From Liolophura sinensis (taxonomy: Eukaryota; Mollusca; Polyplacophora; Chitonida; Chitonidae): DNA of 64,000 nt. Both the position numbers and the translations under genes were made by a program. Location: NCBI RefSeq assembly GCF_032854445.1, contig NC_088300.1:60362984-60426983 (forward strand). Direction: 5' to 3'. Position 1 is the stretch's first letter; each line of letters starts with the position of its first letter. Positions 187-39,486 of this stretch are shown here, in pieces. The notes below the pieces were generated by a model. The model had not been told where the DNA came from, made no database searches, and was given only the letters and a program-made list of their open reading frames with translations.

Positions 187-3100
187 TATCTTCCTTATAT
201 GGAGGACGCCATATTGCGCATGACAGACACTGACAATAATGGTGCCATCAGTGATAATGAGATTCGAATGTTCCTGGCCACACCGGGTGTCCCCGTGTTC
301 CTCCGAAACGCTCTGACAGAGGACAGTGTACAGGCCGCTGATACAAACCAGGACGGACAACTGGAGAGATACGGTAAGTGTTCATTTATCTTAGACAGTA
401 CGTAACTAAAGTGATATAGAGGTAGACAATTATCTGTTGCTCTCCACATCGGATTTCACGCAACTGACTTGAAATTTGTGCAAGAACTGCTTTCAAACCT
501 CAAAATTTAGGCGGGTGGTGTTATAAGGTATGGCGATTTTGTCTGTCTGTCCGTCCGTTTGTCTGTGCGCCCGTACGTGCCTATGTACGGGAAAACAACT
601 CCAACTGTTTTGCATGTATAGCTTAATTGATGCATGTCGCCCTGGTAACCAGATTGCTAATCTCCCTCCATGTGTACTATATACATGTAGATAAGCATGG
701 TCCCGAGCTACAGCTCTGCAGGTGTTTTGTATAGGTAGTTTTAATTGTTGGTAGATACATAAATACAGAGAAAATGAAATGTGTCATTTTTCCTCGGTGG
801 TTATGGTAACAGATTGCCAATTTCCCTACGTCTGTAATATGTAAATAGCAATGTATTATACTTCGGGCATATATATACCGTTACTCTAATTACGTTTGTT
901 TAGCATTTAAGCAATGCCATGTTGTTAAATGAAAAGAATTGGTTAACATTTTATCAGGTCTATTCACTTTTGAGGTTCCATTAGAAAATTATAGCACATT
1001 AGTGTGTTTAAGTGCACGGCACAGGATATAAAGATTGTTAAACTCGCTTATATTTATTTGCAGAGCTACAGGTCATTTTAATGGGAGCATTTTCTCACAT
1101 AACGTTTCCACCCATTTATGCCATCGTCAATGTTCTGACATTTGAAACCAGACAGATGGTCCAAAGAGGGGAAATAACTGTGCCCCAGGTAAATGTACGA
1201 GTAGCTTTTAAATGAGATACCTGTTTCTAGTGCGCATGACGAGTTTTTGCTCAAGTGGACTATATTAAAGCATTGTAATCATGGGCAGTCAAATACAAGA
1301 CTGGATATTTCGTGGATTTTAAGTGAATCTTTGTGACATTCTTAGATTTTACATGTACTCGAGTAGAGTTTCATGTCGAAAACTTAGAAAAATGCACATA
1401 AAAAATTCATAGCGAGTTAAATACGGCGCTGTCGTCCAAGTCGATCTGTAATGTTGTGGAATTTACTTGCATAATAGATCCAGCGTTTGGTTTATTGCTG
1501 CACCACTCGGAAGAACGTATCTAGCTTATATCTGTTCTGTTGGAATTTTGGTTATTAACTCTTCTACTGATCTATGATTTTATTGGTGTTTATAATGACC
1601 TATTGAAGAATTTCTTTCTTGCGACAATGGTCTTAAGATTGACTAATTCTTGGGTTTTTTTTTTTTTTTTTTTTTTTTTTCATTCATTGAGACTCCAACG
1701 GAAATCGCCCAGACCGCACTTGACGTTCTGGACACCAACGACAACGGCAAGCTAAGCAGAGATGAAGCGGCTGAGTTCTATAGCGTAGTTGCCAGTCAGA
1801 ACTTCTGGGAAGATTTAGTTAATACCGCTACTGCCCTTGACGCTGACAGAGATAACGAGCTAGATCTGCAAGGTACGATTTTGTTATTAAATACACGAAA
1901 GTTACCTCTGATAGGCCTACATGCAGTAAAGAAAAAAGATCACATATTGCATTTAAGGAAGGCCAATTTACACCGCAAAAACAAAGGTTAAGGTTTTTAT
2001 TTCATCCCAAATGAGAGCAAAAAAGCTCCAGCAGTACGACAGAATAACAGTAATGAATTTCGGTGAAAAATGTAATCATTTCTATACGGCCGGACGGCGT
2101 TTATTTTATTTATTAATTTGTTTTGTTTTTTTGTTTTGTTTTTGTTTTTTTGGAGCCCTGGACATACCACTGGGCATTTATTCAGCTCTGCCAAAAGGCT
2201 TGTTCAAGGATTTACCTCCCTTGACGAAAAGGTATCGGTCTATTATCTTAGTATTAAAGCATATGGAAAATATTGTCGTTTACTTGGTCAGTTTGGCAAT
2301 GCACAGAAGCAAATTGCAATGATTTTACAAGAAATTTTACCAGCGGATTAGCCACAGCTGATCACTGTGCTTATTTAAATTCCACCCTTCATCCCAAATG
2401 CTAACAGCATAGGAAAGTTGAAGTGATACCTTCCGTTAAGGGGGAATAATCCATGAAAATGGAAGTAATTTATGTATGACGAAAGGCCGGAATAGCTTCC
2501 ATACATGAGCGAATGTTAAACATTCCGAAGAAACATCACTAAAGCTTTTTGCAAAGTTCTCTTAAAAGGTAATTAATTTGTTTGTAAATGTGATTTTTTT
2601 TTCATTAGGCCTAGATGGTAAACGGTTTTCTTCAACGCTATTAAATCGCTTCGTTAGAGAGTGACTTTAGGTATAACGAACGTAGGGTAAGAAATATTAT
2701 ATTTTACTCGGAAAATACAATTTAATATTTATCTGCGAAATATAAAGATTTTTATAAATCATCAGCCATCTTTTGGAAATCTCACCTCCACTGCGCCATA
2801 TCATTTTATAAAAATATCTCAGTAAAGTGACCAACTCTATCTCACACTGATTAAGAAATAAGAAGACAATAATACAACTTCGCCAAAACATGAGTATTAT
2901 TATTTTATGGAGATAATCAGATAATAGGTCCAGTGCATCCTCATTTATTGATTTTATTCATTTATTTGATTGGTGTTTTACGCCGTACTCAAGAATATTT
3001 CACTTATACGACGGCGGCCAGCATTATGGTGGGAGGATACCGGGCAAAGCCAGCGGGGAAACGCACGAGCATCCGCAGGTTACTGGAATACCTTCCCACG

Positions 3101-5590
3101 TACGCCTGGAGAGGAAGCCAGCATGAGCTAGACTTGAACTCACCTCGACCGCACCGGTGAGAGGTTCCTGGGTCCAACTGAGCCACGGAAGCCCCCTATC
3201 AGTTCTCCTGCCTAATATGATAAAAATGTGATAAATATAAAGATAGACCTATATACATGTATCCGAACAGAGGGGTTAATCCATTATTAGTAAGTGTTTG
3301 CTAGACACGAGTCAAAAATAGATGAATACGTCAAATCAGTTTTGTCAGCTTGATCCCCGTTTCCTTAATATAAAACAAAGGTGTAGGAATAGTAAGCCTT
3401 ATTCGCTTACTTTCGCTTTAGTGAAATGCTTTTGAGAATGATGTAAACTATTGTTAATGTTACTAAGTGGGTTTAAGTTACATTGTGATGTGATCAATAT
3501 AAATCAAGTTTGACTTTGATATGAGGGATGCATATAAACTACGGGGCAAAAGAAACGTATAACTTTTAAATGCAGTTTTTTCTATGGAAAAATAAGTTGA
3601 ATAAGTTTGAACGTTGTGCGAATACGTTTGCACATAAGCACCCTGTGTACACGTCACTTTTTAACGAGATTCATTGAAATTGGTCTAAGACATCATGAAA
3701 AATCGGAAGAACAGAGTTTCGGGCCCTGCTGAAAATTCTCGATAATGACCGCCGTATAAATACCGATGTAGCACATGGTAAGGGTGCAATACCATAAAAA
3801 ACATCTAAGAGATGCCGAGACTCACACAAGCAGAACGTGATAGAGCCACTGGTATGGCCGACATGGGGGCCAGCCAACACCACATTGCCAGAATATTCAA
3901 TTGCAGTCAAGCCACCATCAGCTGACTGTTGGGTCGTTACTGCCTAACAGGCAGGACACAAGATCGTCCAAGATCGGGCAGGCCAAGTGTTACAGCGCCT
4001 GGTGAAGACCGGTACATCCGCACAATCCACCTGCGTAACCGGTTTGTGACGGCGACGTCAACGGCGGAAACGGCACTGGGACACCCCATCAGCAGACGCA
4101 CAGTCTTACGACGACTCCGCGTGAGTGGTATCAGAGCCTATCGCCCCTTCCGTGGAATGGCATTGGCTCCTCTACACCGTCAAAACAGGCTGCGTTGGGC
4201 AAGAGTTGTACGTCGATGGCAGCGACGAGACTGGGAAAGGGTGCTGTTCACTGATGAAAGCCGATATAACCTCTTCAGAAATGATGGTCGAATTCGTGTG
4301 TATCGACGCAGGGGAGAGCGATTGGCACAAAACTGCATTCAGAATGTCCACCATTTTGGTGCTGGTGGGGTGCTTGTATGGGGCGGAATTCGTGGGCAGG
4401 TGAGAACAAGATTGGTCATCATCCAGGGAAATCTGACTGGCCAAAGATACCGAGATGAAATATTGGAACCTGTGGTGGTGCCATTCGTGCATCAACAGCA
4501 AAGGGGTATCCTTTTGCAGCAGGACAATGCACGACCTCATACCGCCAGAGTTGTACTAAATTATCTGGACACCGTTGATGTCAACGTACTGCCTTGGCCA
4601 GCACGATCGCCAGACATGAATCCCTTAGAGCATCAGTGGGATCATCTTGATCGACGTCTGAGACAACGCGTCCCTCCCCACAAAACAGGCAACAGCTCGA
4701 ACAGGCTTTATTTGAGGAGTGGGACAGAATTCCTGATGACGTCATCCGGCGGCTGACGACTTCCATGAGGAGACGTATTTTGGCTTTAATTGATGCAATG
4801 GGTGCTCACACAAGCTACTAACGATCTGTCATATGACATGATAGGACATTAGGTACACCTTTTTAAGGGAGTCCCTTTATTTGCATTTGTGTAATTTTTC
4901 AGATTTACCCCATGCCTTGTTTACTCGGCCTGACAGCAGGTGTAATATCCATTTGGCTTTGAATTTTTGAACAGAACTTGGAAAATTGTTTATTGCAATA
5001 TAATGCTTATCATGTTGATACTGTCTGTCTTTCTTTCTCTTTCTTGTGGTGCTGAACAAGGTTATACGTTTCTTTTGCCCGGTAGTTTATATATGTGCAT
5101 TGGCAAATATAGCTACAACACAGTTCTGTCTTATCGCCAGTCAGTGTGTGCTGACAGCAGTATTACATTGATGTTGCACGATCTACATACACCACATGCG
5201 TAACTCCCGTTTTAAAAATTATTTTATTATTCGCTTATATGAAACTGATTTAAGTAGGCGCGGGTCTTTTGTTTATGAAAAAGGATCTGGAACCAACTGC
5301 AGCTCCAGTCAAAATTCGTTGGACTTGGGATTTAATCAGGGCAGCCATATCAGTGAAACTTAGAGTACGACCATGACTAAAGTAAACATCAATCAAATAG
5401 ATTAATGGATTTCAAATATTTCCAGTGATATATTATATTGTATTCATCAAACTCTGTATCTGTTGCAGAAATTATCGCAGTGTACGAGGCACAAGTGGAG
5501 AGGTACGGACCCTTGAATGTGATGCAGCTTATCTTCTATGGACGACTGAGATCTATCTTGGGGCCAGTATCACTCGACATCCGCCAGTGA
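187..5590 (+). CDS. Secreted four-EF-hand protein, paralogue A (exons 2-5; exon 1 lies before the window)
   Basis: Exons are 187-373, 1064-1188, 1692-1872 and 5469-5590 (stop TGA 5588-5590). All have AG/GT borders and join in one open frame of 204 codons. The protein is inferred to bind Ca2+ in the secretory pathway or outside the cell, because paralogues B-D begin with a signal-peptide exon. Four canonical 12-residue EF loops are visible: DTDNNGAISDNE, DTNQDGQLERYE, DTNDNGKLSRDE and DADRDNELDLQE (the last has Asn instead of Gly at position 6). The final Glu of loops 2 and 4 is encoded across an intron (G|AG and G|AA). The helical exon 3 carries the family motif FETRQMVQRGEI, and exon 5 has YGRLRSILG. 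Intron 4 (3.6 kb) holds a SINE and a dead Tc1 element. A LINE begins about 20 bp after the stop. I recognise the EF-hand architecture but no named family; a role in a calcified matrix is only a guess. Confidence 0.85.
374..1063. other. Intron 2 of gene A
   Basis: No coding signal or recognised repeat in this 690-bp intron. It has a consensus-like donor (GTAAGT) and a TTTGCAG acceptor. Confidence 0.6.
1655..1680. repeat. Poly-T tract before exon 4 of gene A
   Basis: An uninterrupted run of about 26 T ends about 11 bp before the TTGAG acceptor of exon 4. It serves as an extreme polypyrimidine tract, and its length is likely to be polymorphic or misassembled. Confidence 0.8.
2956..3195 (-). mobile_element. 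tRNA-derived SINE, near full length
   Basis: Read on the minus strand it runs from the tRNA-like head (GGCTTCCGTGGCTCAGTTGG) through the body to the tail near 2956. Plus-strand marks are TTTATTTGATTGGTGTTTTA and GCCGTACTCAAGAATATTTC. The reading frames over it are SINE sequence, not genes. It lies in intron 4 of gene A. The head has a short deletion compared with the copies at 17606 and 57182. Confidence 0.85.
3533..5091 (+). mobile_element. Tc1/mariner transposon, inactivated
   Basis: Both ends carry the same inverted terminal sequence: left GGGCAAAAGAAACGTATAAC at 3544-3563, and its reverse complement at about 5061-5081. The match extends outward through TATAAACTAC. TA dinucleotides adjoin both ends, as expected for TA target duplication, although the exact outer border is ambiguous (3533 or 3542 on the left). 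The single gene inside is a Tc1-type transposase broken twice. The element sits in intron 4 of gene A in the same orientation as the host gene. Confidence 0.88.
3812..4821 (+). pseudogene. Tc1-like DD34E transposase, one stop and one frameshift
   Basis: The natural start ATG at 3812 opens with the N-terminal helix-turn-helix region (MPRLTQAERDRA, then GASQHHIARIF). An in-frame TGA at 3923-3925 interrupts it, and the same frame continues straight on with GRTQDRPRSGRP. The catalytic triad is visible: D in FTDESRYNL, D in LQQDNARPHTA and E in SPDMNPLEHQWD. At the C-run 4676-4679 one base appears lost. The expected C-terminus (RRRILALIDAMGAHTSY, then TAA 4819-4821) continues in the neighbouring frame. 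The restored length would be about 335 residues, normal for Tc1 transposases. The catalytic core is intact in sequence but no single reading frame covers the protein, so it is non-autonomous. Confidence 0.9.
5300..5405 (+). repeat. Degraded SINE 3' remnant upstream of exon 5 of gene A
   Basis: The stretch CATATCAGTGAAACTTAGAG followed by ACATCAATCAAATAGATTAA resembles the end of the common SINE. It is heavily diverged. Confidence 0.4.
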
Positions 5591-5610
5591 TTGAGGTTGT
5601 AATTGTAAGT

Positions 5611-15529: not shown

Positions 15530-16043
15530 AGAAAAGAACACAATGAAATCTTTCCTTCCAGTTTTTGTCGCCGCTGTCTGTCATCATCTTAGTGGCACAA
15601 ATGGCCGTGTATTTCTCAGAAGCCTACTTAGCTCTCTCTCAGAAGACCGATTTGAGGTTAGTGGATATAGTATTGTCACTCACCTCCAAAAAGCTCTTTA
15701 TGTATCTACATGTTTCTGTTTCCGCTGAACTATTTTTGAATGTCATTTTGAAAATCGGTTTCTGAAAGTTGCTGAGTGACGAAAGGGCACTTTGAGAAAC
15801 CAGTACCATTTGTCGTTAAGACGGGGAAAAATACTTGGAAAATACACAGTTGTGTACACAAAGGTGTATTTTGTTTAACATCTTCGCTTTGCAAAAATGA
15901 CATAAGAACAAACGTAAAAGATCGATTGCAAAGGTGTACAACCACAAGGTTAACTCTTGTATGGTCCTTTTCTCGATTGATTTCTTAAAGTCAGGCTGTT
16001 CGTTTTAATCCGGGTTCAGCGCTCCACCCAAAAGTCCGAATAA

Positions 16044-16090
16044 CATTGTATAAGTAATAATTGTTTGAATACGGCTTTTGAATAAATATA
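16044..16090 (+). repeat. Old SINE 3' remnant upstream of exon 2 of gene B
   Basis: ATTGTATAAGTAATAATTGT, TTGAATACGGC and GAATAAATATA follow the order of the SINE end (TCGTATAAGTGAAATATTCT, TGAGTACGGCG, AATAAATA). It ends about 12 bp before the exon 2 acceptor, the same position as in gene A. Confidence 0.5.
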
Positions 16091-17605
16091 TTATTTTCTA
16101 GTATCTTCCTGATATTGAGGACGCCATCTTCCGTATGAGAGACTCAGACAGTAATGGCGCCATCAGATATAGTGAGATCCGTAGGTTCCTGGCCGTACCC
16201 GGTATACCCGATTTTATCCGTAATGATCTCAGGTTGACACCGGAAGCTATCAAGGCAGCTGATAATAACCGGAACGGACAGCTGGAAAGACATGGTAAAA
16301 TGTTCTTACCGGTATCCCCCCTTTAGCTGTACTTATCGTATACAGTACGTCTGTCACTAGATGTATACAATAATCTTTTGTTTGTCCGCATGAGATTTCA
16401 CGCTTGTTTTATACTGACAGTTTACCTGAATAAAGGGACTTAATTTGACGCAATTTAAAAGTTTCTGGTACAACAAAAAGCACTAACAACTTTGCTCCAA
16501 GCTTGATTCAAATGTTGTTTGCATAAAGACAGTATCTCTGAAACAAAATCACATCTAAGACTTTTGAATATAAAAACCAGCGTTTATTTTACAGAGGTAC
16601 GTGTCATTTTGGAGGACGTATTGAATGCCTTTCCTTCGATGCTGCCATCATTATGGTAATAACATTGGAGACCAGACTGATGGTCGACAGAGGAGAACTA
16701 CCTCAACCTAAGGTAAGTGTGCAACGAAACAATCTGAACAGTAATATTCTGTTTATTTACTTTGTTTGTTGATTAAATATTGCACTGATGCTATTTTATT
16801 GACGCACTAAACTAGTTTTTCACTCGAAGTTCACCTATTCGGCCTTGAAATTATTCAAGGACTATGGCTGTCTGAATTTTGAAATTGATACCACACGTAG
16901 AATATCGACTGTACTCCCTGCATGTATCATTGGAAACTGTTTAGACTGCCTCTCTCTTACATTCTGCAGACTTTATTTACAATTTCTAGTCTTTCTTGCA
17001 TGTTCTTTTGGAACTAGTGTTTGAGCTTCTTTTGTTAAAGGGTCTAGCCGTTATCGACTTCGAAGTTCGACTTTTATGGTTTACGAGTGCTATACGAATG
17101 TTGACTTAACGCTTACATTTTCATTGCTCCTCTGATTATATTGGGTTATTTACTTCTTTACTCTTTCATCTTTTTGATTTATAAAACGAGCTCATGTGTG
17201 CTGAAATAATCCGAAGTCACAGTAATAATAAGAAGAATCAGTTTCTTCTTCCAAATCAGTTAAATCTTCAGCTTAGCATGGGCAAACCTGATTTTTTCAC
17301 TATTTCCACTGTTTCTACTGTTAATTTTGAGATTATGGCTTTTTCTTATAATTTATTAAGCTTTCGTTCTTCCCTCAGACACCAGCTGACGTCGCCCAGG
17401 TCTTATTGGACATTTTTGATAGTAACAATAACGGCAAGTTAACCATAGATGAAGCTGCTGAGTTGGAGAGAGTAATTGCCGATGAGGAATTCTGGAATAC
17501 TTTAGTTGAGACCTCGTCTGCACTAGATACTGATGGTGATATGGAACTGGATCTGCAAGGTACGAGCCCATCAGTAAAGACATAAAACTTTCCTCTAATA
17601 CAAAT

Positions 17606-17853
17606 ATTTATTTAATTGGTGTTTTAAGCCGTACTCAAGAATATTTCACTTATACGACGGCGGCCAGCATTATCGTGGGAGGAAACCGGGCAGAAACCCA
17701 CGACCACCCGCAGGCTGCTGAGGGACCTTCCCACTTACGGCCGGAGAGGAAGCCAGCATGAGCTAGACTTGAACTCACAGCGACAGCATTGGTGAGAGAC
17801 TCCTGGGTCATTACGCTGTGCTAGCGCGCTAACCGACTGAGCCACGGAGGCCC
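17606..17853 (-). mobile_element. Full-length tRNA-derived SINE with target-site duplication
   Basis: The minus-strand head reads GGGCCTCCGTGGCTCAGTCG and the box-B-like stretch is GAGTTCAAGTC. The tail adjoins CTCTAATACAAAT on the left (about 17593-17605), matched by CTCTAATACAGAT on the right (about 17854-17866). This 13-bp target duplication has one mismatch. It lies in intron 4 of gene B. Confidence 0.9.
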
Positions 17854-18176
17854 CTCTAATACAGATAAACTGGCGAAGTATAAACAATTGATGTTCCATT
17901 TCGGGTACGTTACACTGCCTATCAGAACGTCTTGTTTTATGTCTGAACCAGCCGTAATGTTATTACAAAGTGAAAACCTGTATTAAATGGAAATTGTGAC
18001 AAAAATGACATTTTATAAAATAATGGTATGAAATTGGGGTGAAAAGTAATGTAATTTTGGTCTGGAATGAACAACCGAAATTTTCATAACTGTCATTTAA
18101 GAAAAATTTCAGAAAAGTTAGAGTATATTTCAATCCGGTGTTACTGACGCTTTTGCTAATTTCCTTTGCGAAGATT

Positions 18177-18386
18177 GTAAGTCCTCTGGCCGATTCCACA
18201 AAGCCATTTCTGACTGAAGTCAAAATCTGACATACAATCTCCAAGCTAATTTTAGGTTTAAAAATTCAAATTTTGTACCCCTCAAATGTGTCCAAATTTC
18301 ATCTTCCAATACCAAAAATTAGGCATCTTAAGAAGTTTTTAAAAGTCAGAAAGGGCTTTGTGGAGTCGGCCCCTGTAGAGACTTAC
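18177..18386. repeat. Imperfect inverted repeat in intron 4 of gene B
   Basis: The left arm (18177-18215) has GGCCGATTCCACAAAGCC and TTCTGAC. The right arm (18345-18386) has GTCAGAAAGGGCTTTGTGGA and GTCGGCC, ending AGACTTAC as the complement of GTAAGTCT. Arms of about 40 bp flank about 130 bp, as in a small MITE or hairpin. Confidence 0.65.
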
Positions 18387-19039
18387 TAACGTGGTATTTT
18401 AAATAAACCCACGGAGACACCTCTCTTTACATATGCAATAAAATGATTACTCTTGCTCTATTAAACCGCCACTTTCTACACTGAAAATTCGTCCATCAGA
18501 TTACACATACATTGCAAGTGTGTGCAAGTCATGAATTTCTTTTTGTGCTGTATTTTTTTATCTTAAGAACGTGTTTGACCGACCAGTGTTTTAGGTTTTC
18601 ATGACATTCTAACTTATGTCATTTACACGAGGAGATCAGGAGATACCAGGCGAAGGGCTGGGTTTCCCCCATCCATAAACATGACCCACGTTCGGACAGC
18701 AAAATCTAGATGGCGACTTTAAACGCCAGTGAAATTAAAAAGTGTACAGTCATCAGTTGTTTTATATTCCAGTGTGACTTTATATTGCTGTTGCAGAAAT
18801 TGGCGTTGTGTACGAAGTTCTGGAGGAAAATTACGGCCCTCTAAGCCTGGAAGAGCTATTCTTGTATGGACGAATGAAATCAGTGCTGGGACGAATCCCC
18901 GGTACCTGGAATTGATTGTGGCTCTCAAACACCCCTGGAATGTTTATATTACACACCTGTCAGCGATTAAATAATATGCGCCATCTCAACGTAGATTGTC
19001 TGCCCTTGATACAGTGAAAAACTTACGATTTATTTTGTT

Positions 19040-22061: not shown

Positions 22062-22145
<84 letters not shown>

Positions 22146-22516: not shown

Positions 22517-22528
22517 ACCAGTGAAATA

Positions 22529-22640
22529 TTTATTTATATTTACTTATTTGACTGGAATTTTACGCCGTACTCAAAAATGTTTCACTTATACGACGGCGGT
22601 CAGCATTATCTGGTGAAATACGGATGCTTCTCGATTTACC
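22529..22640 (-). mobile_element. Degraded SINE
   Basis: TTACTTATTTGACTGGAATT, TTACGCCGTACTCAAAAATG and TTATACGACGGCGGTCAGCA are in SINE order. The 5' head side is unrecognisable. Confidence 0.7.
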
Positions 22641-22991: not shown

Positions 22992-25900
22992 AGAAAAGGA
23001 CACAATGAAGTCTTTCCTCCCTGTTTTTGTTGTCTTAATCTGTTACCAACTTAGTGGCACAGACGGTCGTCTGTTGCCCAGAAGCCAGATTACCATTCAC
23101 TCGGATGACCACTTTGAGGTTAGTACCAGTAGTTTTGCCCGTCATCTTCGAGAATCTCTGACTCAATTTTTTTCATCTGCATAATGTTTCCTGGTTTTCT
23201 ATGTTGAATATGAATTTCTATAATATTGCTATTAAATTTATTTATTTATTTGATTGGCGTTTTTTGCCGAACTCAAGAATATTTGACGTATACGAAGGCC
23301 AGCATTATGGTGGGACGAAACAAGGTAGTGCCCGGGGGAACCCACGACCATCCGTAGGTTTTTGACAGCCCGTCTCACGCACGGCCGGAGAGGAAGCCAG
23401 GATGAGGCTGGACTTGATATTTCTATTAAAGGACAGTGTTGATAGACCAATATGATTAGGCATGTAAAATAGAAAAACTATTGAGTTCGGAAAACGCTCT
23501 GTGTTCAAAATCAGAGGAAACGTAAAGTATTGTTCAATAAACAACCATATCAACAATTTTCCCAGTATGATCTTATATCGAGCTAAGGCCCCGGGTAGCT
23601 CCACACATACAAGCATAAATTAGTTTACATGTCGACCCCAGGTAGCTCCTTTTGGTGTCTTGGTATGCAATAAACCAGTGAAACCACAGTTTCTAATCCA
23701 GCGCCCACCATCTCGACTGAGGCTTGGAGTAATGCAGAGGGTTTGTTAGGTACCCTGCGAAGGGCGGTAACTCACACTGGGTTCTCAGCTTTCTTCCACC
23801 CATGCATATGCCTTTCTCCCGTCGTATTAGTAAATTCAATCAAATAACTAAATATAAATCTTTTCTCTAGTATCTCCCAGATATTGAGGACAGCATTTTG
23901 CGCATGGCAGACTTAGACAATAGTGGCGCCATCAGCAACGATGAGATCCGAGTGTTCCTGGCCACACCGGGTGTCCCCGAGTTCCTCCGAAACGCTCTGA
24001 CCAGGGACACTGTACAGGGCGCTGATACAAACCGAAACGGACAACTGGAGAGATACGGTAAAATGTTCATCGGTTGTGCTTTTACCTTACTATAACTTAC
24101 CTGTATTTATCTTATAGGGTACATCCTTCACACTGATTTGAATTCGTTGGCTCACAACCTTACTTACACTTTGCGGAATAATTCACTGGCAGGTACTTAC
24201 ATGTATCAACAATTTGATTAAAATAGGAGGAAAAAAGATGTTCTACATTTTAGTAAAGCATTCGATACAATATGACAAAATGGCCTTGGGCAAGAGTTAT
24301 TAGTACTTAGTACATTAGTACATTTATTAGTATAAATGGAACAATGCTGCATGTTATATGAATTCTATATTGTGGTATCGCCCTGTAATTCACATTTTTG
24401 ACCTGTAATATTGGTGCCCGCCATTGAACGATGTGGAGTGCTTTATACATAAACAAATTTAATGAAAAAATTGTTTATGCATTTATTTATGCAGATGCAT
24501 TAATCAGGATTAAACACTACTGTGACAAATGGTAGACTTAATTAAAGCATATGAATCCAAAACAATTGTAATTTGCGTTAGAAATGCTCCTTTTAATTAA
24601 AAACGTAGGTACTGAAAAAATTGAAATTGTTGAAAGTTATATCAAAATATCTTTGCTTTTTCTTTTTGAAATTAAGAAGCACTGTTACCGCAATATTAGG
24701 CGTACACTTCTTTTTTTTTTTTTTTTTTTTTTGGTGGGTGGGGGGGATTTGGGGTATAGGAAATATAAAGATAGTGGAAAACTTTATGGAGAATTGGGCA
24801 AATACCATATTGTAATTTTCGTGTCGTCTTCTCATTGGGAGCCAAATATCTATAAGCTATTACATGTACGATGTTGAGTTCTACTGTCAGATGTGGACTG
24901 TACTATACACCAGTACTAACTGGTTCTGTCGGCTGGGAAGAGAGTTGAAGACATTGGTCTGAACTTTCTCTGGCTATCTCAGAAGCAAACAAGTTGGACA
25001 AAGATTGAAAGATCATTATTACCAACAGTAGCTCCATTAATGCACAAGTTCCTCTAACGGAGATTTTCATTCCAAATTTGAAGTGACATGGTCTCCCAAA
25101 TATTAGGTATATATTTTAAACTTCACACGTTTCTGACCCTTACTTTAATGAGAAGATTATTCGTAACCTTTTCTGAATGCTGTTTAAGCTGCTGTACTCT
25201 GCGTGTCTCTGTGTGTACGCCGACTTATCGAAAGTTGGTGTCATTGGGAACTTTCCGCTCGCTGCGCATATGATTTGGGCCCTTCCGGTTGAATATTAAT
25301 GAGGCAAAATGGCCCGCCCTCCTGTGTTGAATTCGAATAACGTTTCGAATTTCAACGTGAGTGATTTAGTTTATGACGCTCAGAATTTGTTTAGAAATCA
25401 AACTTTTGGGCGACCATGTCACTTTAATTAGCTTATCTGGTACAAATAGTTAGCTAGTATGAAACTCCCTTCTACCAATCACAGAGTTCCTGTAGAGACT
25501 GACCGCTGGGGCAACATTGGTAAAGGTCAAAGATTATGTGAATTATATGACCTTAAGATACTTGGTGACGGACATCATAACCTGGCTCCCTTCTCTACCC
25601 TCGTCTCTCGGCTCCATGGGGATTATATTTGAATGGTTAGTGCATTTCCTAGTACACAAAGGGCAATGGATCGACCCCTTCAGATCTATATATAAACCAC
25701 ACACAGTGAAGGTTGCAAAAATTTATAAATTGTTTTTTTTTTTTTGTTTTGTTAAAACATCAAAATGTTAAAACAAAATGTTTTAACAGATTCAAACACA
25801 CAATGTGATAGTCTATAGCCCAATCTGTATTTTAAGGGAAAAGAAAACAACTGTGACACCTATCTCTGATTCGAAAATATTCGTGTATAAAGTAAGACAA

Positions 25901-28900
25901 TGTTTACAATCGAAAGAATATCACATGGGACCTAAAAGCTATCAAATTCTGTGTATTGGAAAGGTGCAAGAGGAACCATTCTATCAGTGGGTTAGAATGG
26001 ACGTGAAATCTAACACTCCAGGTAATTCAAAGGGGATGGGCCCAATATTCAAAACAGGAAATAATCGACTAGAGGTATGGTCTGGAAGATTGAAAACTTA
26101 GGTAACATGCTAGGCAATAAAAAAAACAACAAAGACAACAACTTTGATAGAGATGGCGATCTATATAAAGATCAATGGTGAGCTGACTACTGTACAACGA
26201 TAACTTGCTCCTACATGTGAATCAACCTGATGAGCATCTTTACCATGTAGTTTGACCGTTTTCCCCATATCTCACAGACGGTGAATGGGTGTAACAAGCT
26301 TGAATCTGAATCTGAAAATCTGAATCCCTTTCCACAAAGGCTGTTTGTATACAGCCAGTGTCCACTGTATGTATGTATGTATGTATGCATACATGCTTGG
26401 GATTTTACGTCGTACTAAACAATTTTTAGTACTAAACACATAACGACGAGCAGTCATTACGCGAGTGTGTACATATACTGTGTCTTCATGTGGTAGGGCG
26501 ACTCCATGCCGCCAATGTTCTGCCGCCACTGAAGTATCATACAGACTCAGACATAACACTCAAAACAGTCACATTATACTGATACCGGCTAGCCACTCCA
26601 GTGTCGTTGCCCTAACCGCTCAATGCTGAGCGCCAAGCGAGACAGCAACAAGTACCATTCTGGATCGCAGCTCTCCCAACTTCGAGGCGGACGCTCTAAC
26701 CATTACGCCACCGAAGCGCTTACTTAACAAATTAAAGCACAGCTTATATTTCTTTGAACACTTACGAATGTTTAGCTCGCATATGTTTTCAGAGCTACAG
26801 GGAATTTTGATGGACGCCTTGAGTACCTTCTCATCCAGCCTAGCCGTCGTCAAAATACTTTCATTTGAAACCGAACAGATGATTAACAGAGGGGACATAA
26901 CTCTTCCTGAAGTAAGTGTGCGATGAAACAATATCAGCTCTGTTTATTCACTTATTTTATTGATACCGTATTTACCGAGGCAGTCAAGATTTTTTTTTAA
27001 ATTACGATTTTGTTTTATATTTAAGTATATGTTTTTTAACATACCGTCACCGATGTTTCTTTTTCGACTTAGACATCAATTGAAGTCGCACAGACTTTAT
27101 TGGACGCTTTGGATAGCAACAACAACAACAAGTTAAGCCTGGACGAAGCGTCTGAGTTCTATAGCCTAGTTTTCGATCAGAGATTTTGGGAAAGTTTGGT
27201 TGAGGCCTCTGCTGCTCTGGACGCTGACAGGGATAGCGAACTGAATCTGAAAGGTACGTGTCCATTATTTAATACATGCCAAACTCCTCTCGTACGCCTA
27301 TTCGTAAACGGGCGCATGTATGCTGCGATTACATGTCACTATAGCCTATTTCTTTTCGAGAGTCGCCTATATTCAGATGTCTGTCAAATCAATACTCGCT
27401 ACCAAAATTGCCTTCAGTCAGTGATGTGTAACAGCACAAGCTGTACACATGGATATGTTGGAAGTCCATATTCTTGCAAAAAAAATCAAACTAGAACACT
27501 TTTTCTAATTCATGATGTTATACTTCATAAGATCGGTTTCGATGCCAAGAGCCCATTGCCTCGGGTGACGTCATAAGTATTCAGAACCAAATTGCATGCT
27601 GGGAAATGGGCGTTGAGGGTAATTTTTTTACAATAGCCGGACTAACATGCGGCTAGAACAAACTCCACCCAGTAACACGGTCTACAGTACATTCTCAGTG
27701 AATTGAGTATATTGCTTTTTATAACAAACTTTCCTAACATCCAGCTGTAAATCCATACTGCCGTGAGATCGTATACTACAACAGATACTATCAAATTCAT
27801 TTATTAAGGTTATATCATACTAAGACTCCGCCCAGTATCCAGCATGCCACTGGTTTGGGAATAATTACGTCACCCGAGGCAATGATTTCTTGCCATCGAA
27901 ACCGAGCTTATTGACTTTAACATTAAGAATTAGAAAAAGTGGTCTGACATAATTTCCCTTGCAACAATGTGAACTTCAAACATATCAATGTGTAGAGCTT
28001 ATGTTGTTATGTGTCACTGATTAAAGGCAGTTTTTGTGGCGAGTATGACTAATTTTACAGACAGCTGAATATAGGCGACTCTTTAAAAATAGACTATAGC
28101 CCCAGATGGCTGTTCCATAGGCCTACATCTGTTTATACTGGACTGGCAATGTATCGTGCTGTGTTTCAGATCCTTAAGGTGCGTTGCATTACATAGATAA
28201 AGTCTTGTTTTACTTATCGGCAGTCCCTATGCCAAAACCAGAAGCAAAGTTTTAGAAAGCGAAGTCCAGTTTCCTCGCAAACAAAAGTACGGTCCAAACT
28301 TTTCATTAAAGCTCTCTGTGATGAGTTGATATTCATTATGTGTGTCTCTTGTCAATGGGAATGAATTGAAAATGTGACAAAACTGGAGCGTGTACATTAA
28401 CTTTTTCCAAAAAATGCTAATAACAGCAACGAATTGCGGCAAAAAAAGGGTCATGGTTTAATACCTATTCTGTTTCTGTTATGAAATATAGATTCGAATT
28501 GTCTGTCGTGGAGGGAGTAGAATAACAGCAGCCGTGATGAAAAAGAACGTTAGCAGTCATTTATAAAATTGTCCGTGATTCTAAAGGTTACGCAAAGTTG
28601 CGTTGTAAATATCATTTTTTTCATGGGTTTTTTATTCGGCCTAGCTACAGGTCTCTTGCTACATTTTTCAACAGTTTTCAACAAATACAAATGTAAAAAG
28701 ACTGAAGGACTGTCATTGAAATCTTCTGAGTATGGCATTAAACACCAATCAGATTGGATTCTTGTGGTATCTATTCAGTTACGGTTAAAATGGGACGAAG
28801 AAGCTGCAGGCTGAATTATATAATATCGTAATAATATACAAAAGGTCTGTTTATTGGTTTTCCTTTGCTATACTAATTACACTGCAGCTGTTTACCAATA

Positions 28901-29194
28901 TTTGACAAGTAAAACTTCAAATAAGTAAAATAACTGAGAGGCAAAGCGACAGAAAATGTAGGGTTGTACCAGTATTTAAACTAGGTGTACATAATTCAAG
29001 CGATGGACGTCGAATACCTGTTATATAATTCCAGCCTGTTCATTACGTGGCCTGTATTAACTGTATCTGTTGCAGAAATTGTCGAAGTGTACGAGGCACT
29101 GGGGGAAAAGTACGACTCTATGGACATGGAACCGCTAATAATGTATGCCCGAATAAAGTCTGCGTTGGGGGCATTCCCAGAGGTTGAAAATTGA
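22992..29194 (+). CDS. Secreted four-EF-hand protein, paralogue C (complete)
   Basis: Exons: 22992-23118 (ATG 23005), 23871-24057, 26793-26911, 27073-27253 and 29076-29194 (TGA 29192-29194). Together they give 720 coding nt, 239 aa. The signal peptide is MKSFLPVFVVLICYQLSGTDG. EF loops are DLDNSGAISNDE, DTNRNGQLERYE, DSNNNNKLSLDE and DADRDSELNLKE. The first two are canonical; the last two lack the position-6 Gly but keep the D1, D/N3, D/N5 and E12 ligands. Exon 3 has the motif FETEQMINRGDI. The C-terminal exon ends with YARIKSALGAFPEVEN. Donors and acceptors are all GT/AG. Candidate poly(A) signals AATAAA lie at about 29573 and 29586. A fold-back element sits in intron 4 and SINEs in introns 1 and 2. 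The nearest relative is A by exon 2 sequence. Secretion and Ca2+ binding are inferred from sequence; the biological role is unknown. Confidence 0.9.
23237..23418 (-). mobile_element. SINE lacking the tRNA head
   Basis: TTTATTTATTTGATTGGCGT, ACTCAAGAATATTTGACGTA, CCAGCATTATGGTGGGACGA and GGCCGGAGAGGAAGCCAGGA run in SINE order on the minus strand. It is in intron 1 of gene C. Confidence 0.85.
23789..23851 (+). repeat. Old SINE 3' remnant upstream of exon 2 of gene C
   Basis: CTTTCTTCCACCCATGC, CCCGTCGTATTAGTAAAT and CAATCAAATAACTAAAT are ordered as in the SINE end. It stops about 20 bp before the exon 2 acceptor and corresponds in position to the remnants in A and B. Confidence 0.6.
24058..26365. 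other. Intron 2 of gene C, mostly featureless
   Basis: Contains a poly-T run followed by a G-rich stretch (about 24711-24750). A small hairpin lies at about 25749-25793: TGTTAAAACAT and its complement ATGTTTTAACA separated by about 20 bp. No gene seen. Confidence 0.5.
26366..26717 (-). mobile_element. Second tRNA-derived SINE family, full length
   Basis: On the minus strand the head reads CGGTGGCGTAATGGTTAGAG then CGTCCGCCTCGAAGTTGGGA, a tRNA-like A-box region. The 3' end contains GTACGACGTAAAATCCCAAG and a CATA-type tail (plus strand TATGTATGTATGTATGCATA at about 26370). It ends about 75 bp upstream of exon 3 of gene C. Confidence 0.75.
27339..28099. mobile_element. Fold-back element with arms of about 270 bp
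   Basis: The left arm (about 27339-27612) and right arm (about 27829-28099) are imperfect reverse complements along their whole length. Examples are AGAGTCGCCTATATTCAG on the left with CTGAATATAGGCGACTCT on the right, and CATTGCCTCGGGTGACGT with ACGTCACCCGAGGCAATG. The middle is about 215 bp. No open frame spans it, so it is a non-autonomous foldback or MITE-like element in intron 4 of gene C. I see no clear target duplication. Confidence 0.8.
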
Positions 29195-32300: not shown

Positions 32301-32308
32301 ATGTAAAG

Positions 32309-32382
32309 GACATACTGCATACAAAGTAAAACCAGAGCAGCGACGATAATATGATGGTTGGCAAATGGTCACAGGTAACAGG
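32309..32382. repeat. Unnamed dispersed repeat, copy 3 (partial)
   Basis: CATACTGCATACAAAGTAAA, ACCAGAGCAGCGACGATAAT and GCAAATGGTCACAGGTAACA match the start of copies at 19308 and 60241. Confidence 0.55.
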
Positions 32383-33076: not shown

Positions 33077-33279
33077 TCTATACAGGGTAGACTTCGGAGA
33101 ACTGTGTCAATGGTTTACCGGAATAGGTCGAAATAATTTCCTAATGTTTTTGAGTGGAGTTGTTTTAGCTAATTTGAAGTTTATGAGTTAAACACTCCGG
33201 CAACTGACCGTCTCGGCGAAGAGGTGAGGTGTAAAGTCAACGCTACCATAGTTTCATAGTTTGTATCTTGTACGGTAAC
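33077..33279 (+). promoter_or_regulatory. Putative promoter and non-coding first exon of gene D
   Basis: A diverged relative of the blocks upstream of B and C: CTATACAGGGTAGAC, GTTTACCGG, CGGCGAAGAGGTGAGGTGTA and GTAACGTAAGTAGATGAGTA. The base aligned with the +1 G of the donor in B and C is A here, but a good donor GTAAGT lies 14 bp upstream at 33280. The acceptor before the coding exon is at 33632, giving a short inferred 5' UTR intron of about 0.35 kb. Confidence 0.5.
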
Positions 33280-33632
33280 GTAAGTAGATGAGTATATCCA
33301 CCATTGTTTTTCTCTTGATTTATTGCTATATCAGTATATGTAAGGCGTTTATCGATATAAAATGTATTTTACTTTTTTATAGGTAATGAAGAGACAATTT
33401 ACCAAGCACTAGTAAAACCTACCGACATGCTTTTGAAACTTGCCTTTAACTTCCATTTAAAAAATGGAATCATGTCAAAATTGTTCTTCTTGATTTTTCT
33501 TTTTCGGTTGTTTTTTATTCGGTGTAAAACACACAATTCAGGTTTCTTTTACGAAGCTCTTGTAATCTACGCTTTAGAAACTTGGGTTCGTGTTTATAAA
33601 AAGGAATCAAGTTAAAATTGTATTTTTTTCAG

Positions 33633-36600
33633 TGATAAAAAGAAATTATGCAGGTTTTCCAGCATTTGTTCTTAGTTGTCGTGGTCTGTTGTCGTGTCAG
33701 TCACGCCGCAACAACCACTGCATCCCCCAGAAGCCAATCTGTCAACCCTACCCAGCAATCAGTTCAGGTTAGTCAATTTTGTGATCGTTGTGCTGCCCCC
33801 CTAGGGTATCTAGGGTTTCTTGAGCTTATAGCTGGAGTACTGGCTAACTAAGCAGCTCACTTAAAGATGAAACATTAATTTTTCTGGGATTATGACGGGA
33901 AAAACTAAAAAACAAAAACCAACAGAGAATGAATAGACAAGCAAGTCAAATTACAAAATTGCCATCACTTATTAAATAATAATTTCGTAATAATTACCTT
34001 GGGAATTTATATACATATATATTTTTTTTTTCAAGTATCTTGCTAATCTCGAGGACGCCATTTTGCGCATGGCAGACTCGGATAACAACACCGCTGTCAG
34101 TAGCGACGAGATTCAGGAGTTCCTGGTCACAACGGGAATCCCCGAGTTTCTCCGAAATGCCCTGACACCGGACGCCATTGAGGTTGCTGATATAAACCGG
34201 AATGGACAGCTTGAGAGGCAAGGTAAAAATGTCGAGCGGCTGCGTTTTATCGTTTACGTGTATCTGTATGACAACTGTATTTTATACCGTAAATTTCCCC
34301 GTAATGACTTTTTCCGCCAGGCAAATTTAGTTTTATACAGACAACATAGTAAGCAATTATTTACCACAGCCCAAAACAAATGAAGTCGTGTGTTTCCTGG
34401 AAAGTCCATGTTGGCTGACGGCTGATATACGAATGTCTGTTTTGAGGCATAGATCCATAGTATTTTTTCAGTCCCTTTGTAATAAGTATGAAATGATTGA
34501 TAGACATGTGAAAGTACAGGTAAATTACAAACAAACAAGACACGACGACATTTTATGAAAAAGGAATCAGGCTGGAACATTGTATTATAGCATTGTCTGT
34601 GGCTTTTCAAAGGATCAGTTCATTAGGTTACCAAGTTGCTTAATAACCGTTTTGTTTTTCCTCCGCCTAGCAGGCAACTTCTCTTTACTAATTTTACTAA
34701 TTAACGATGGTCCCATAAAACACTAGCAGTGGGAGCTCAACGGCTGGAAGGATTACAGTGGCTCCTATCGGAACCAGTGAGGTCACAGATTCGAATCCAG
34801 CTCCTTCTGGTTCAGTTAGGACGGCGAATGTTCTTATTTATCAACTCGATCACTTTCATTTTTTGGTCTATTTGTTTATTGGATTGAAGTTTAACATTGT
34901 ACCCGAGATTTTTTCTTACTTTAACGAAGGTGGTCGGTTTTGTGAATTGAAGAAACGGGGATATTTATGGTATACCATCAACCTTTAGCAATTTATACTC
35001 TGACAGCTTACCTGTTGTGTGATGAACAGAATTGCAGGTCTTACTGGTGGAAGACAAGTGGTCTCAGACGAATGTGAGACTGCGCAAACGACCACACGAG
35101 CCCCGTTTACCACCTGTTTTCATCAATGCTCCCTGAAAATCAGAGCGAATCTCGCGTGTCAGCTGATTCATATGCCCTAATTCTTCTAATCTTTAGGACA
35201 GATATTAGTAGTGCTGAAAGTAAAGAACTACATTTCTCTCCCAGTTTCTTGAAAAGTAAACATATAGATGGATGTGAAAAAAAGAAACCAAATATTCCTG
35301 CTGCAATTACATGTATATTGACTGAGAAGAGCAGACCAGGTGTTACAAAAATTAGAAGAATAAGGGTACGTAAAATATTCTGAAGTAGGGCCTAAAACAC
35401 GTTTAATACACATATAAATGTATTTTTGTTATAATACTACAGTTATAATATCGATAACTGGAGGCATGTATATTTACAGAGCTTGGGACTATTTTGAGGA
35501 CAATGCTGACTACCGTTCCACCTGGTCGCGCAATAATCCAAACTCTGGGATTTGAAACCATACTTATGATCAACAACGGCGAAATAGATGTGCCGAAAGT
35601 AAGTGAGCGACAACGTTTTCTATCTGTCTGTCTGAACTTCCCCACAGAAAATGTTTTTCCATGTTTTGATCACAGCAGACCAGATAGCAGAAAGTGTCAT
35701 TCAAATGGCGGAACAAGCATGAAACTAAGCGTCTGGAGATCGGGGTGGTATAGGTGAGTGTGTCGTCTATGTGCATGTTTAAAACGGTGTTGAATCTAAC
35801 GATTCCAAATGATCTTTTATATACAATTATGAAATACAGCCACTGAACAAATCCCTTTTTTGGGAGGTCCAGTTAGATTCAACCAAATATCAACACTTTC
35901 TTAAAAGCATGTATTTATAAATGTAAAAATGGAGAGAAACAGCTTGCTGTAAAGAGGTTTGATTGTAATTGGGTCATAGATCAGATGTACTTCCCTTCAA
36001 AAGAAAACTGTGGTTAGGAAGTTTTAGTTGCTTAAAGTACGTCATGGGCTTCGTGATTGTTTAATGTTTGTGTTATTAAATATGTAGTCTTTGCGCATAC
36101 TGAAAAGCTTTGATTGCACCTACTTCCGGAATATTTTATGTGATTATGAAATTAATTTGAATATATAGATGCGTTGCTTGGACCCTAGTTGTTATTCAAC
36201 CACTTTATACGTACAGCGTTTCTATGTGAATACCAAGGCTTTATTGAACCAAGACTTTAATACCAAGACTTTATTAGCGTTCATATCATCGGGCGGCTTA
36301 CAACCCAAGCATACATACTGATACCACTGTACGACGCAAAACCCAAGCTTACATACAATCTACATATAGTGCCACTGAACGACGTAAAACCCAACAATAC
36401 ACACATTCTAGTACCATTGAACGACGTAAAACCCAACCACGCATATATTCTGATACCACTGAGTGACTTAAACCCCAAGCCTACACACATACTAATACCA
36501 CTGGATTATACAAAACCCAACCATGGATATATTCTGATACCACTGAACGACTTAAACCCCAAGCCTACATACATACTAATACCACTGGACGACACAGAAC

Positions 36601-39486
36601 CCAACCATGCATATATTCTGATACCACTGAACGACTTAAACCCCAAGCCTACATACATACTAATACCACTGGACAACGTAAAACCCAACCATGCATACAC
36701 ACTAGTACCATTGGACGACGCAAAACCCAACCATGCATACACACTAGTACCATTGGACGACGTAAAACCCAACCATACATACATACCAGTACCATTGAAC
36801 GACGAAGAACCCCAGCATACATACATACTAATACCACTGTACGACGCAAAACCCAACCATGCATATATTCTGATACCACTGAACGACTTAAACCCCAAGC
36901 CTACATACATACTGATACCACTGGACAACGCAAAACCCAACCATGCATACACACTAGTACCATTGGACGACGCAAAACCCAACCATGCATACACACTAGT
37001 ACCACTGGACGACGTAAAACCCAACCATGCATACATACCAGTACCATTGAACGACGAAGAACCCCAGCATACATACATACTAATACCACTGTACGACGCA
37101 AAACCCAACCATGCATATATTTTGATACCACTGAACGACTTAAACCCCAAGCCTACATACATACTAATACCACTGGACGACGTAAAACCCAACCATGCAT
37201 ACATACCAGTACCATTGAACGACGAAGAACCCCAGCATACATACATACTAATACCACTGTACGACGCAAAACCCAACCATGCATATATTCTGATACCACT
37301 GAACGACTTAAACCCCAAGCCTACATACATACTAATACCACTGGACAACGCAAAACCCAACCATGCATACACACTAGTACCATTGGACGACGCAAAACCC
37401 AACCATGCATACATACTAGTACCATTGGACGACGAAAAACCCAACCATGTATACATACCAGTACCATTGAACGACGCAAAACCCAACCATGCATAGATAC
37501 TAATACCACTGTACGACGCAAAACCCAACCATGCATATATTCTGATACCACTGAACGACTTAAACCCCAAGCCTACATACATACTAATACCACTGGACGA
37601 CACAAAACCCAACCATGCATATATTCTGCTACCACTGAACGACTTAAACCCCAAGCCTACATACATACTAATACCACTGGACAAGGCAAAACCCAACCAT
37701 GCATACACACTAGTACCATTTGACGACGTAAAACCCAACCATGCATACATACCAGTACCATTGAACGACGAAGAACCCCAGCATGCATACATACTAATAC
37801 CACTGTATGACACAAAACCCAACCATGCATACATACTAGTACCATTGGACGACGTAAAACCAAGCATACGTACATACTAGAGCCATTGGATGACATAAAT
37901 CCTAAGCATACATACATACTAATACCACAGATGGCTAGAAACTGTCCGGCAGACAAAGGACGTAAGGAAGATGGACACGGATGGTCGTGGGATTCCCCGG
38001 TCTCTGCCCGGTTTCCTCCCATCATAATGCTGGCCACCGTCGTATAAGTAAAATATTCTTGAGTACGGCGTAAAACTCCAATCAAAAAATAAATAAACAA
38101 ATGGCTAGAAACTGTCCGGCGGACAAAGGACGTAAGGAAGATGAACACGACAGTAGTTGTACAGAAGAAACGGTCTAATGCGACAGTAACGATAAGTTTT
38201 AAACTACATATAAAGACCAACTCACAGTAAAAGACTTCTGGATGTGGGTTTGCATATTGTGTTCGTGGATTTTCATGTTAAACCCACGTTATTGTGATTC
38301 CGTGAATAATCTAAAAAAGAACTACTTGACTGTTGCATTCTCTGTCCATTGTTTAATATGCAAAAGGTGGACTTTCTTTATAAATTTAGCGTTTAATCTT
38401 GATTTAGGACGCCAGCGATGTTGGAGTCATCATCCTTGACATTCTGGACACCAACAACAACAGCAAACTGAGCATGGAGGAAGCACATGCCTTCAGCCAA
38501 GCAATTGATATTGATGGATTCTTTGATGATTTAGGTCTTTTCGCGTCTATTCTGGACACAGACGGAGACAGACAACTCGATTTGCAAGGTACGAGTTGAG
38601 CTCTAAATGCATGCATTAAAGTGTTTCGCTTGTTTTCATGAAATAGTCCAATTTCGACTGCTTAAATTAGATATACATTGCTGTACCAAATAGATTGGTG
38701 GCTGTTTATATCTCGGCCGTTAGCTTTACATTTGAAATAAAAATCCGCATTCGTGGAAAACAGATTAATCGTACGTGGTGTAGTATACGAATACGAATTC
38801 CCTATACGAATAGGGAACGGGAACTTACAATTTAACAACTTTTAAAATCACTTTATAGTGATCTTTTTGATTGATTTATAAACATTTATCTTGAGTGATT
38901 AGATGTGTTTTCTAGACAAATACGAATTAAATGCTGTTTTTCCTGACTCGACCGTGAACTCATCTATGAAGCTTTTTAAGACAACGAAACCTCACTTACA
39001 TAATGCAGGTGAAATAGCCAGAAACGTTTGTCGAAGTGTGACTGCTTCTTTGCCAGTCAAGCTGAACGTTTAAGCATATAGCTCTGAGAGTGACTTTATT
39101 TTGCTTTTAAATGCTCTTTTCCTAGATAGGGTAAGAAGTTAAAGTTTGTTTGCTGTTGTGGGCGACTCAAATAGTCAAAGGGACACAATTTTACATGGAG
39201 GATCCAGATATTTCACTGGCTTATTAGAACGGCAAACGTATGACAAATGTTTTTGTACACCGCATGTATTCTTCTACACCGACGTTGTATGCTCTAAACA
39301 TCAGTAAGAAAATTTTCCGTCACTGTATATTATTTTCTCTGTTTGCTTTTTACAGAACTTACCGCTGTATACAAAGTGCTGCAGAGAAAATACGACTATA
39401 TTACTGCAGAACCATTCATTCTTTACGGGAGAATAACAACATTACTGGGTGAATTTCCCACATACGAAAAGACACCTTCATTTTGA
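33633..39486 (+). CDS. Secreted four-EF-hand protein, paralogue D (complete, most divergent)
   Basis: Exons: 33633-33767 (ATG 33648), 34036-34222, 35480-35598, 38408-38588 and 39356-39486 (TGA 39484-39486). Together they give 738 coding nt, 245 aa. The signal peptide MQVFQHLFLVVVVCCRVSHA is followed by a Thr/Ser/Gln-rich linker unlike the other copies. EF loops are DSDNNTAVSSDE, DINRNGQLERQE, DTNNNSKLSMEE and DTDGDRQLDLQE. The position-6 Gly is lost in three of four, while acidic ligands and Glu12 remain. Exon 3 keeps the family motif as FETILMINNGEI, and exon 5 has YGRITTLLGEFPTYEK with a longer tail. All splice sites are GT/AG. AATAAA occurs at about 39814. Intron 3 (2.8 kb) carries the 42-bp minisatellite and a SINE. 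Probably a diverged calcium-binding role; function unknown. Confidence 0.88.
34740..34985. repeat. Degraded SINE-like sequences in intron 2 of gene D
   Basis: A box-B-like stretch AGATTCGAATCCAGCTCC lies at about 34787. A minus-strand SINE-core-like segment (TTTATTGGATTGAAGTTTAA, ..ACGAAGGTGGTCGG) spans about 34867-34945. Both are heavily diverged. Confidence 0.4.
36290..37927. repeat. 42-bp minisatellite, about 39 units, with higher-order structure
   Basis: The unit reads approximately ACTAATACCACTGGACGACG, TAAAACCCAACCATGCATAC, AT. Unit variants recur in a six-unit (252-bp) order, for example at 36649 and again at 36901, then with four-unit and longer steps. Because 42 is divisible by three, both strands stay open for 375 codons (+, 36369-37496) and 453 codons (-, 36506-37867). 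The plus frame would read PLDDVKPNHAYILI repeats. It lies inside intron 3 of gene D, has no signal peptide or independent promoter in view, and is best taken as non-coding. Confidence 0.92.
37979..38100 (+). mobile_element. 5'-truncated SINE flanked by a 49-bp direct duplication
   Basis: SINE sequence from GATGGTCGTGGGATTCCCCG to CAATCAAAAAATAAATAAAC. It is bordered by ATGGCTAGAAACTGTCCGGC plus 29 further shared bases at 37931-37979, repeated at 38101-38149 with three mismatches or fewer. Confidence 0.88.

What the first reader, a model, noticed from the sequence alone, without database searches (positions are those of the whole stretch)
187..39486. Tandem cluster of four secreted EF-hand genes with one exon plan
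Four paralogues in the same orientation share exon number, near-identical exon sizes (187/193, 118-125, 181, 119-131 nt) and intron phases. The combination of signal peptide, four EF loops and conserved non-loop motifs (FET..M..RG-I in exon 3, YGRi.s.LG in exon 5) does not match a named family that I recognise. It may be a lineage-specific family of extracellular Ca2+-binding proteins. The window's left edge cuts gene A, so the cluster may extend further.
Basis: partly seen in the sequence, partly recalled or inferred. Interest (0 to 1): 0.75.

Follow-up and report, generated by a model that had tools for sequence, protein, structure and literature searches.

The report
Chiton cluster of secreted calcium-binding genes
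A chiton genome carries four neighbouring copies of a gene for a small, probably secreted calcium-binding protein related to calmodulin; one copy looks damaged, and the proteins' job is unproven, although calcium handling outside cells is the likeliest.

Summary
Four same-strand genes share a five-coding-exon plan with phases 0,1,0,1. All 20 coding exons were located, including gene A's first exon just left of the window (-354..-244). A, C and D are open (241, 239, 245 aa). Of the two acceptors tried, only the second AG keeps B open, and it loses loop 2's last Glu. Genome searches found no match with E below 0.5 outside this 40 kb. The assembly is that of the chiton Liolophura (published as L. 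japonica, corrected to L. sinensis).

Predicted mature A, C and D are ~25 kDa, Cys-free, pI ~4.2, without an ER-retention tail. The only Pfam match over its cut-off type is EF-hand. The new point is anatomy: introns 2 and 4 both split codon 12 of an EF loop in phase 1, the place where calmodulin-type genes of this genome are cut in their last loop; calmodulin's loop 2 is cut at codon 4. Both halves may derive from a calmodulin C-lobe-type exon pair. Likeliest role: extracellular Ca2+ buffer or matrix protein; no expression data. New member of a known kind.

The parts
187..5590 (+). Gene A, open, 241 aa: coding exons -354..-244 (left of the window, in L001), 187-373, 1064-1188, 1692-1872, 5469-5590
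15543..18915 (+). Gene B: exons 15543-15656, 16102-16294, 16595-16712 (118 nt, frame-breaking), 17379-17559, 18797-18915; open (240 aa) if exon 3 is read from 16597
16595..16712 (+). Gene B exon 3, one base short of the 119-nt type; tandem AGAG at its acceptor
23005..29194 (+). Gene C, open, 239 aa: exons 23005-23118, 23871-24057, 26793-26911, 27073-27253, 29076-29194
33648..39486 (+). Gene D, open, 245 aa, most diverged: exons 33648-33767, 34036-34222, 35480-35598, 38408-38588, 39356-39486

Best explanation
A four-gene tandem family in a chiton encodes small, acidic, probably secreted proteins, each with two EF-hand pairs. SHOWN: four paralogues, exon plan, loop residues, three open genes, one lesion, no other copies detected in the genome. 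INFERRED: the signal peptide sends the protein out of the cell, where up to four Ca2+ ions bind reversibly. Coordinating positions are kept while the loop glycine is often lost, above all in loop 4, which may suit low affinity at millimolar Ca2+. The protein would act as an extracellular Ca2+ buffer or carrier, or as a Ca2+-dependent matrix component; I think the calcifying fluid of shell plates or girdle sclerites is the likeliest site. INFERRED origin: both halves descend from a calmodulin C-lobe-type exon pair, because each has the phase-1 intron in codon 12 of its second loop; the gene then gained a signal-peptide exon and was tandemly duplicated.
For: Exons and junctions; reversed-sequence control. 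N-terminal hydrophobic peak in A, C and D (11-residue Kyte-Doolittle 2.21, 2.76, 2.90 at residues 5, 3, 7; next best beyond residue 30: 1.74, 1.71, 1.95), no Cys in mature A, C, D, pI 4.15-4.21, C-termini SLDIRQ, FPEVEN, EKTPSF (cleavage sites set by eye). Counted by eye: ligand positions 1, 3, 5 and 12 acceptable in 16 of 16 loops with B read at its first acceptor; Gly at position 6 in 9 of 16, and in 0 of 4 fourth loops. dN/dS over exons 2-5 is 0.26-0.49 in six pairs, B's exon 3 left out. Calmodulin-type exons of this genome end with a phase-1 donor in codon 12 of the last loop: 3 of 3 in L004/L005 and 20 of 20 exon ends, one of which (L012) is an L004 exon again, so 22 of 22 distinct; the 20 were chosen because their Pfam match stopped near there. 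Calmodulin loop 2 is cut at codon 4 (donor seen in L004, matching exon starts in three genes). Molluscan EF-hand proteins tied to mantle or shell: Hdh-SMP5 (PMC10741955, passages), PFMG1-like genes (PMC3120837, passages), EFCB1/2 of Lottia (PMC4094399, passages).
Against: No expression, proteomic or biochemical data, and no trained signal-peptide predictor. The main texts of a chiton tooth proteome paper (PMC6351634, listing, passages) and of the Acanthopleura genome paper (PMC7850002) do not contain 'EF-hand'; supplements were not available. The two halves resemble each other only weakly (Z 3.3-5.9), no more than they resemble calmodulin lobes and far less than calmodulin's own lobes resemble each other (Z 21.4); C-terminal halves prefer the calmodulin C-lobe in 2 of 3 (D: 1.9 against 2.6). 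Exon 2 folded alone gave a poor model (pLDDT 58, pTM 0.30).
Confidence: 0.5

Rival explanations
1. Secreted EF-hand proteins whose role is not calcification: haemolymph Ca2+ carrier, mucus, seminal fluid or egg protein.
For: Same sequence features; a tandem family with dN/dS of 0.26-0.49 would also fit reproductive or mucus proteins.
Against: The molluscan EF-hand proteins found in print here are tied to mantle or shell, but my searches asked for shell terms.
Confidence: 0.35
2. A secretory-pathway resident protein (CREC-like), not released.
For: Hydrophobic N terminus and EF-hands.
Against: No HDEL/KDEL-like C-terminus in A, C or D, and four loops, whereas CREC members have six or more (recalled).
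Confidence: 0.07
3. A decaying array: B is a pseudogene and the others may be following.
For: B exon 3 frameshift.
Against: A, C and D are open with GT/AG at all their introns; dN/dS below 0.5 in all six pairs (dS above 1 in A-D, B-D and C-D, so those ratios are rough). B's other exons and splice sites are intact, so a recent lesion, an assembly error, or use of the second AG remain possible.
Confidence: 0.08

Closest known systems
Calmodulin and calmodulin-like genes of the same genome
   Same: Two EF-hand pairs; last intron phase 1 in codon 12 of loop 4, as in 22 of 22 distinct calmodulin-type exon ends read (most were chosen for ending near there). N-terminal halves of A, C and D score higher against the calmodulin C-lobe than the N-lobe in 3 of 3.
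   Different: Signal-peptide-like N terminus, longer linker and C-terminal tail, loop-2 intron at codon 12 instead of codon 4, low similarity.
Molluscan EF-hand proteins of mantle and shell (Hdh-SMP5; PFMG1-like; Lottia EFCB1/EFCB2)
   Same: EF-hands; a signal peptide in Hdh-SMP5 and in some PFMG1-like proteins; Hdh-SMP5 is Asp-rich. EFCB1/2 are only named in the passage seen.
   Different: Hdh-SMP5 is 134 aa with three EF regions; here ~240 aa with four. Sequence homology was not tested, as the sequences are not held.
Sarcoplasmic / aequorin-type EF-hand proteins
   Same: The best PDB match is aequorin (E 5e-5, EF-hand stretches only).
   Different: Those are not secreted (recalled). Four EF-hand frames of sarcoplasmic-like look read elsewhere in this genome run uninterrupted for 174-202 aa.

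Membership tests
EF-hand superfamily | 12-residue loops with ligands at 1, 3, 5, 12 and a hydrophobic residue at 8 | tested here: met
   16 of 16 loops by eye (B read with its first acceptor); Pfam EF-hand_1 in 3 of 3 proteins scanned, best E 4.2e-14
Calmodulin | ~149 aa, no signal peptide, loop-2 intron at codon 4 | tested here: not met
   239-245 aa with a hydrophobic N terminus; loop-2 intron at codon 12
CREC (calumenin/reticulocalbin) | Six or more EF-hands and an HDEL-like C-terminus (recalled) | tested here: not met
   Four loops; C-termini SLDIRQ, FPEVEN, EKTPSF
SPARC extracellular Ca2+ domain | PF10591 match and disulfide-bonded EF pair (disulfides recalled) | tested here: not met
   PF10591 in 2 of 3 members, best E only 0.052; no Cys in mature A, C and D
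Molluscan SMP5 / PFMG1 / EFCB EF-hand proteins | Sequence homology to the named proteins | not testable with these tools
   No mollusc proteomes held; only architecture compared through passages of papers
Secreted protein | Cleavable signal peptide | tested here: inconclusive
   Hydropathy peak at the N terminus of A, C and D; no trained predictor available

The most novel reading that the evidence does not exclude
Chitons made their own extracellular calmodulin-like family from two copies of a calmodulin C-lobe exon pair behind a signal-peptide exon, loosened its loops for millimolar Ca2+, and use the tandem array in plate or sclerite calcification. One copy keeps its frame by using the second AG of a tandem acceptor.
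Probability: 0.12. Interest if true: 0.5.

Novelty: new member of a known kind. Interest (0 to 1): 0.3.

Why it matters
EF-hand proteins recur in molluscan shell studies, but how they arose is unclear to me from the papers seen. An intron in the same codon and phase in both halves, which is also calmodulin's own, gives a concrete and testable route from an intracellular sensor to an extracellular Ca2+ protein. The genes are ready targets for in situ and proteomic tests in chitons.

Tried and rejected
Tried without result: alignment-based search of the genome (not accepted); Pfam and NCBIfam for a full-length named family (EF-hand models; DUF7151 in 3 of 3, best E 1.2e-5, but 18 bits against a cut-off of 27 for C; NCBIfam XopAW in 3 of 3, 32 bits against 120 for C; LanM in 1, a deiodinase-related model in 2); PDB sequence search (EF-hand stretches; best 60 of 211 rows shown); structure of exon 2 (pLDDT 58, not used further); five paper searches for chiton or molluscan EF-hand families and one on EF-hand intron positions; one search was for the species. 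Rejected: that L004/L005, fetched because their hits looked like the same exon plan, belong to this family; they are calmodulin-type. Not supported: extension of the cluster to the left. Left open: gene conversion between A and C in exon 2 (third positions 51 same / 11 different against 84/53 in exons 3-5, Fisher p 0.003, the lowest of five pairs tested, uncorrected), since A-D shows the same trend weakly (p 0.03) and constraint could explain it.

Full report
Where it is. The window is C6:60362984-60426983 of a 609,464,459-base genome in 632 contigs. Contig lengths C3 27,489,247, C4 25,057,479, C9 37,343,639 and C12 31,077,156, and C1 96,433,062 and C11 32,819,725, equal scaffolds listed for the chiton Liolophura japonica in PMC11068029 (passages: 609,495,693 bases, 632 scaffolds). 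C6 and the total differ slightly (82,489,547 against 82,493,220 for C6). A correction renames the species L. sinensis (PMC12441733, whole text).

The four genes. Exon queries from C and D, run over the window, 20 kb to the left and 10 kb to the right, recover all five coding exons of all four genes on the + strand. Introns are GT/AG with phases 0,1,0,1 throughout. Open proteins are A 241, C 239 and D 245 aa. Identity to C is 61% (A) and 46% (D). Against the reversed sequence the best E is 0.065; same-exon matches between paralogues run from 7e-29 to 3e-3 for exons 2-5; the best matches elsewhere in the real sequence are 0.018 (exon 2 against exon 4) and 0.025 (no exon). Exon 1 of D is not significantly similar to the other first exons; it shares size, phase and hydrophobic character. 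In all four genes an acceptor-like sequence lies 13-15 nt before the ATG (by eye), which suggests an intron in the 5' UTR; this is inferred.

Gene B. Exon 3 has 118 nt where C and D have 119 and A has 125. With the acceptor homologous to the others, the frame breaks and runs into stops. All four genes have AG directly after the acceptor AG in B's position or its equivalent, because codon 12 is G|AG. In B a splice at this second AG leaves a 240-aa open frame, but loop 2 loses its final Glu and the following stretch is changed. B's other exons and splice sites are intact, and its dN/dS against A, C and D is 0.38, 0.48 and 0.27 without exon 3. A recent lesion, an assembly error and the shifted splice cannot be told apart here.

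How many. Genome-wide searches with C (20 of 20 candidates scored, 20 matches at E up to 10) and D (15 of 15 scored, 14 matches) return, at E below 0.5, only exons in C6:60362629-60402466; the only matches outside are two C3 frames at E about 1, one of which (L011) is a sarcoplasmic-like EF-hand frame. The C search recovered 18 of the 20 cluster exons at E up to 10, missing D exon 1 and B exon 3, and true short exons scored as poorly as E 6.6; so a diverged paralogue could be missed. The EF-hand pair search scored 150 of 508 candidates and did not list the window's own exons, so it says nothing about the family's size.

Protein features. Predicted mature A, C and D are 24.5-25 kDa, pI 4.15-4.21, with no Cys and no ER-retention tail; two N-glycosylation-type sites occur in D, in loops 1 and 3 (cleavage sites set by eye). 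Ligand positions 1, 3, 5 and 12 are acceptable in 16 of 16 loops, position 8 is I/L/V in 16 of 16, and Gly 6 is present in 9 of 16 and in 0 of 4 fourth loops (by eye; B with its first acceptor). Loss of Gly 6 with ligands kept is what I would expect of loops working at high Ca2+; this is inference.

Gene anatomy and origin. Introns 2 and 4 both interrupt codon 12 of the second loop of a pair, in phase 1. In this genome's calmodulin-type genes the exon ending in loop 4 stops at exactly that place: 3 of 3 read in L004 and L005 and 20 of 20 exon ends, one of which repeats an L004 exon (22 distinct). The 20 were picked because their Pfam match stopped near that point, so they show how common the position is, not that no other exists; donors were judged by eye. 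Loop 2 of calmodulin is cut at codon 4 instead (donor in L004, matching exon starts in three genes). The simplest reading is that both halves come from a calmodulin C-lobe-type exon pair. Sequence support is weak: N-terminal halves of A, C and D prefer the calmodulin C-lobe (Z 8.0/5.7/6.7 against 4.1/4.5/4.7), C-terminal halves do so in 2 of 3, and the two halves resemble each other only at Z 3.3-5.9, no more than they resemble calmodulin, while calmodulin's own lobes stand at 21.4. Independent gain of an intron at the same place remains possible. Abalone calmodulin genes have five exons with identical intron positions and phases (PMC6171432, passages; the figure with the positions was not seen).

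Selection. dN/dS over exons 2-5 is 0.49 (A-C), 0.39 (A-D), 0.26 (C-D), 0.38 (A-B), 0.48 (B-C) and 0.27 (B-D), with B's exon 3 left out. dS exceeds 1 in the three pairs with D, so those ratios are rough. Exon 1, left out of these figures, is faster (A-B dN 0.19, dS 0.22). Purifying but fairly relaxed selection is indicated.

What it is like. For A, C and D, Pfam reports EF-hand families plus weak matches such as DUF7151 (3 of 3, best E 1.2e-5; 18 bits against a cut-off of 27 for C); NCBIfam gives XopAW (3 of 3; 32 bits against a cut-off of 120 for C), LanM (1) and a deiodinase-related model (2); PDB matches cover EF-hand stretches. In print, EF-hand proteins of molluscan mantle or shell include Hdh-SMP5, 134 aa with a signal peptide and three EF regions (PMC10741955, passages); PFMG1 and five EF-hand relatives, some with signal peptides (PMC3120837, passages); EFCB1 and EFCB2 of Lottia (PMC4094399, passages). 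The listings showed no paper whose title or abstract start describes a four-EF-hand secreted family in chitons; that covers only this open-access library, those terms and the rows listed.

Verdict. This is a small single-cluster gene family of a known kind. The intron symmetry is the most informative new fact. Function is a reasoned guess until expression is known.

Noticed in passing
36310-37928: 84/252-bp tandem array inside intron 3 of gene D, strongly skewed and open for over 400 codons in two + frames and one - frame; a repeat, not a gene.
   Followed up: partly
3926-4756 (+), 6986-7321 (-): Tc1-type transposase frame inside intron 4 of gene A (PF13358, PF01498, over cut-off), and a reverse transcriptase fragment between A and B (PF00078, 29.1 bits, just under its cut-off of 29.6).
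   Followed up: partly
48890-49141 (-), with hydrophobic frames at 45149-45361 and 45497-45733 (-): DOMON-like exon (22.1 bits, below the Pfam cut-off of 32.7) and possible transmembrane exons without a Pfam match of weight; could be a ferric-chelate-reductase-like gene, by recall only.
   Followed up: partly
L006 (C3:1.15 Mb), L007 (C4:17.7 Mb), L008 (C6:74.8 Mb), L011 (C3:11.2 Mb): EF-hand genes with uninterrupted frames of 174-202 aa, sarcoplasmic/calexcitin-like by eye; PF13499 hits with similar open frames cluster around these places, most of all on C3:1.15-1.55 Mb (4 of 6 fetched loci read).
   Followed up: partly
158-385 and 23837-24070: Genes A and C are 82% identical around exon 2 but 69-75% in exons 1, 3 and 4 (exon 5: 87% over only 54 nt); gene conversion or constraint.
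   Followed up: partly
2946-3174, 17605-17809, 23230-23417, 22527-22610: An interspersed repeat of up to about 200 bp occurs in introns or flanks of A, B and C at 76-88% identity.
   Followed up: no
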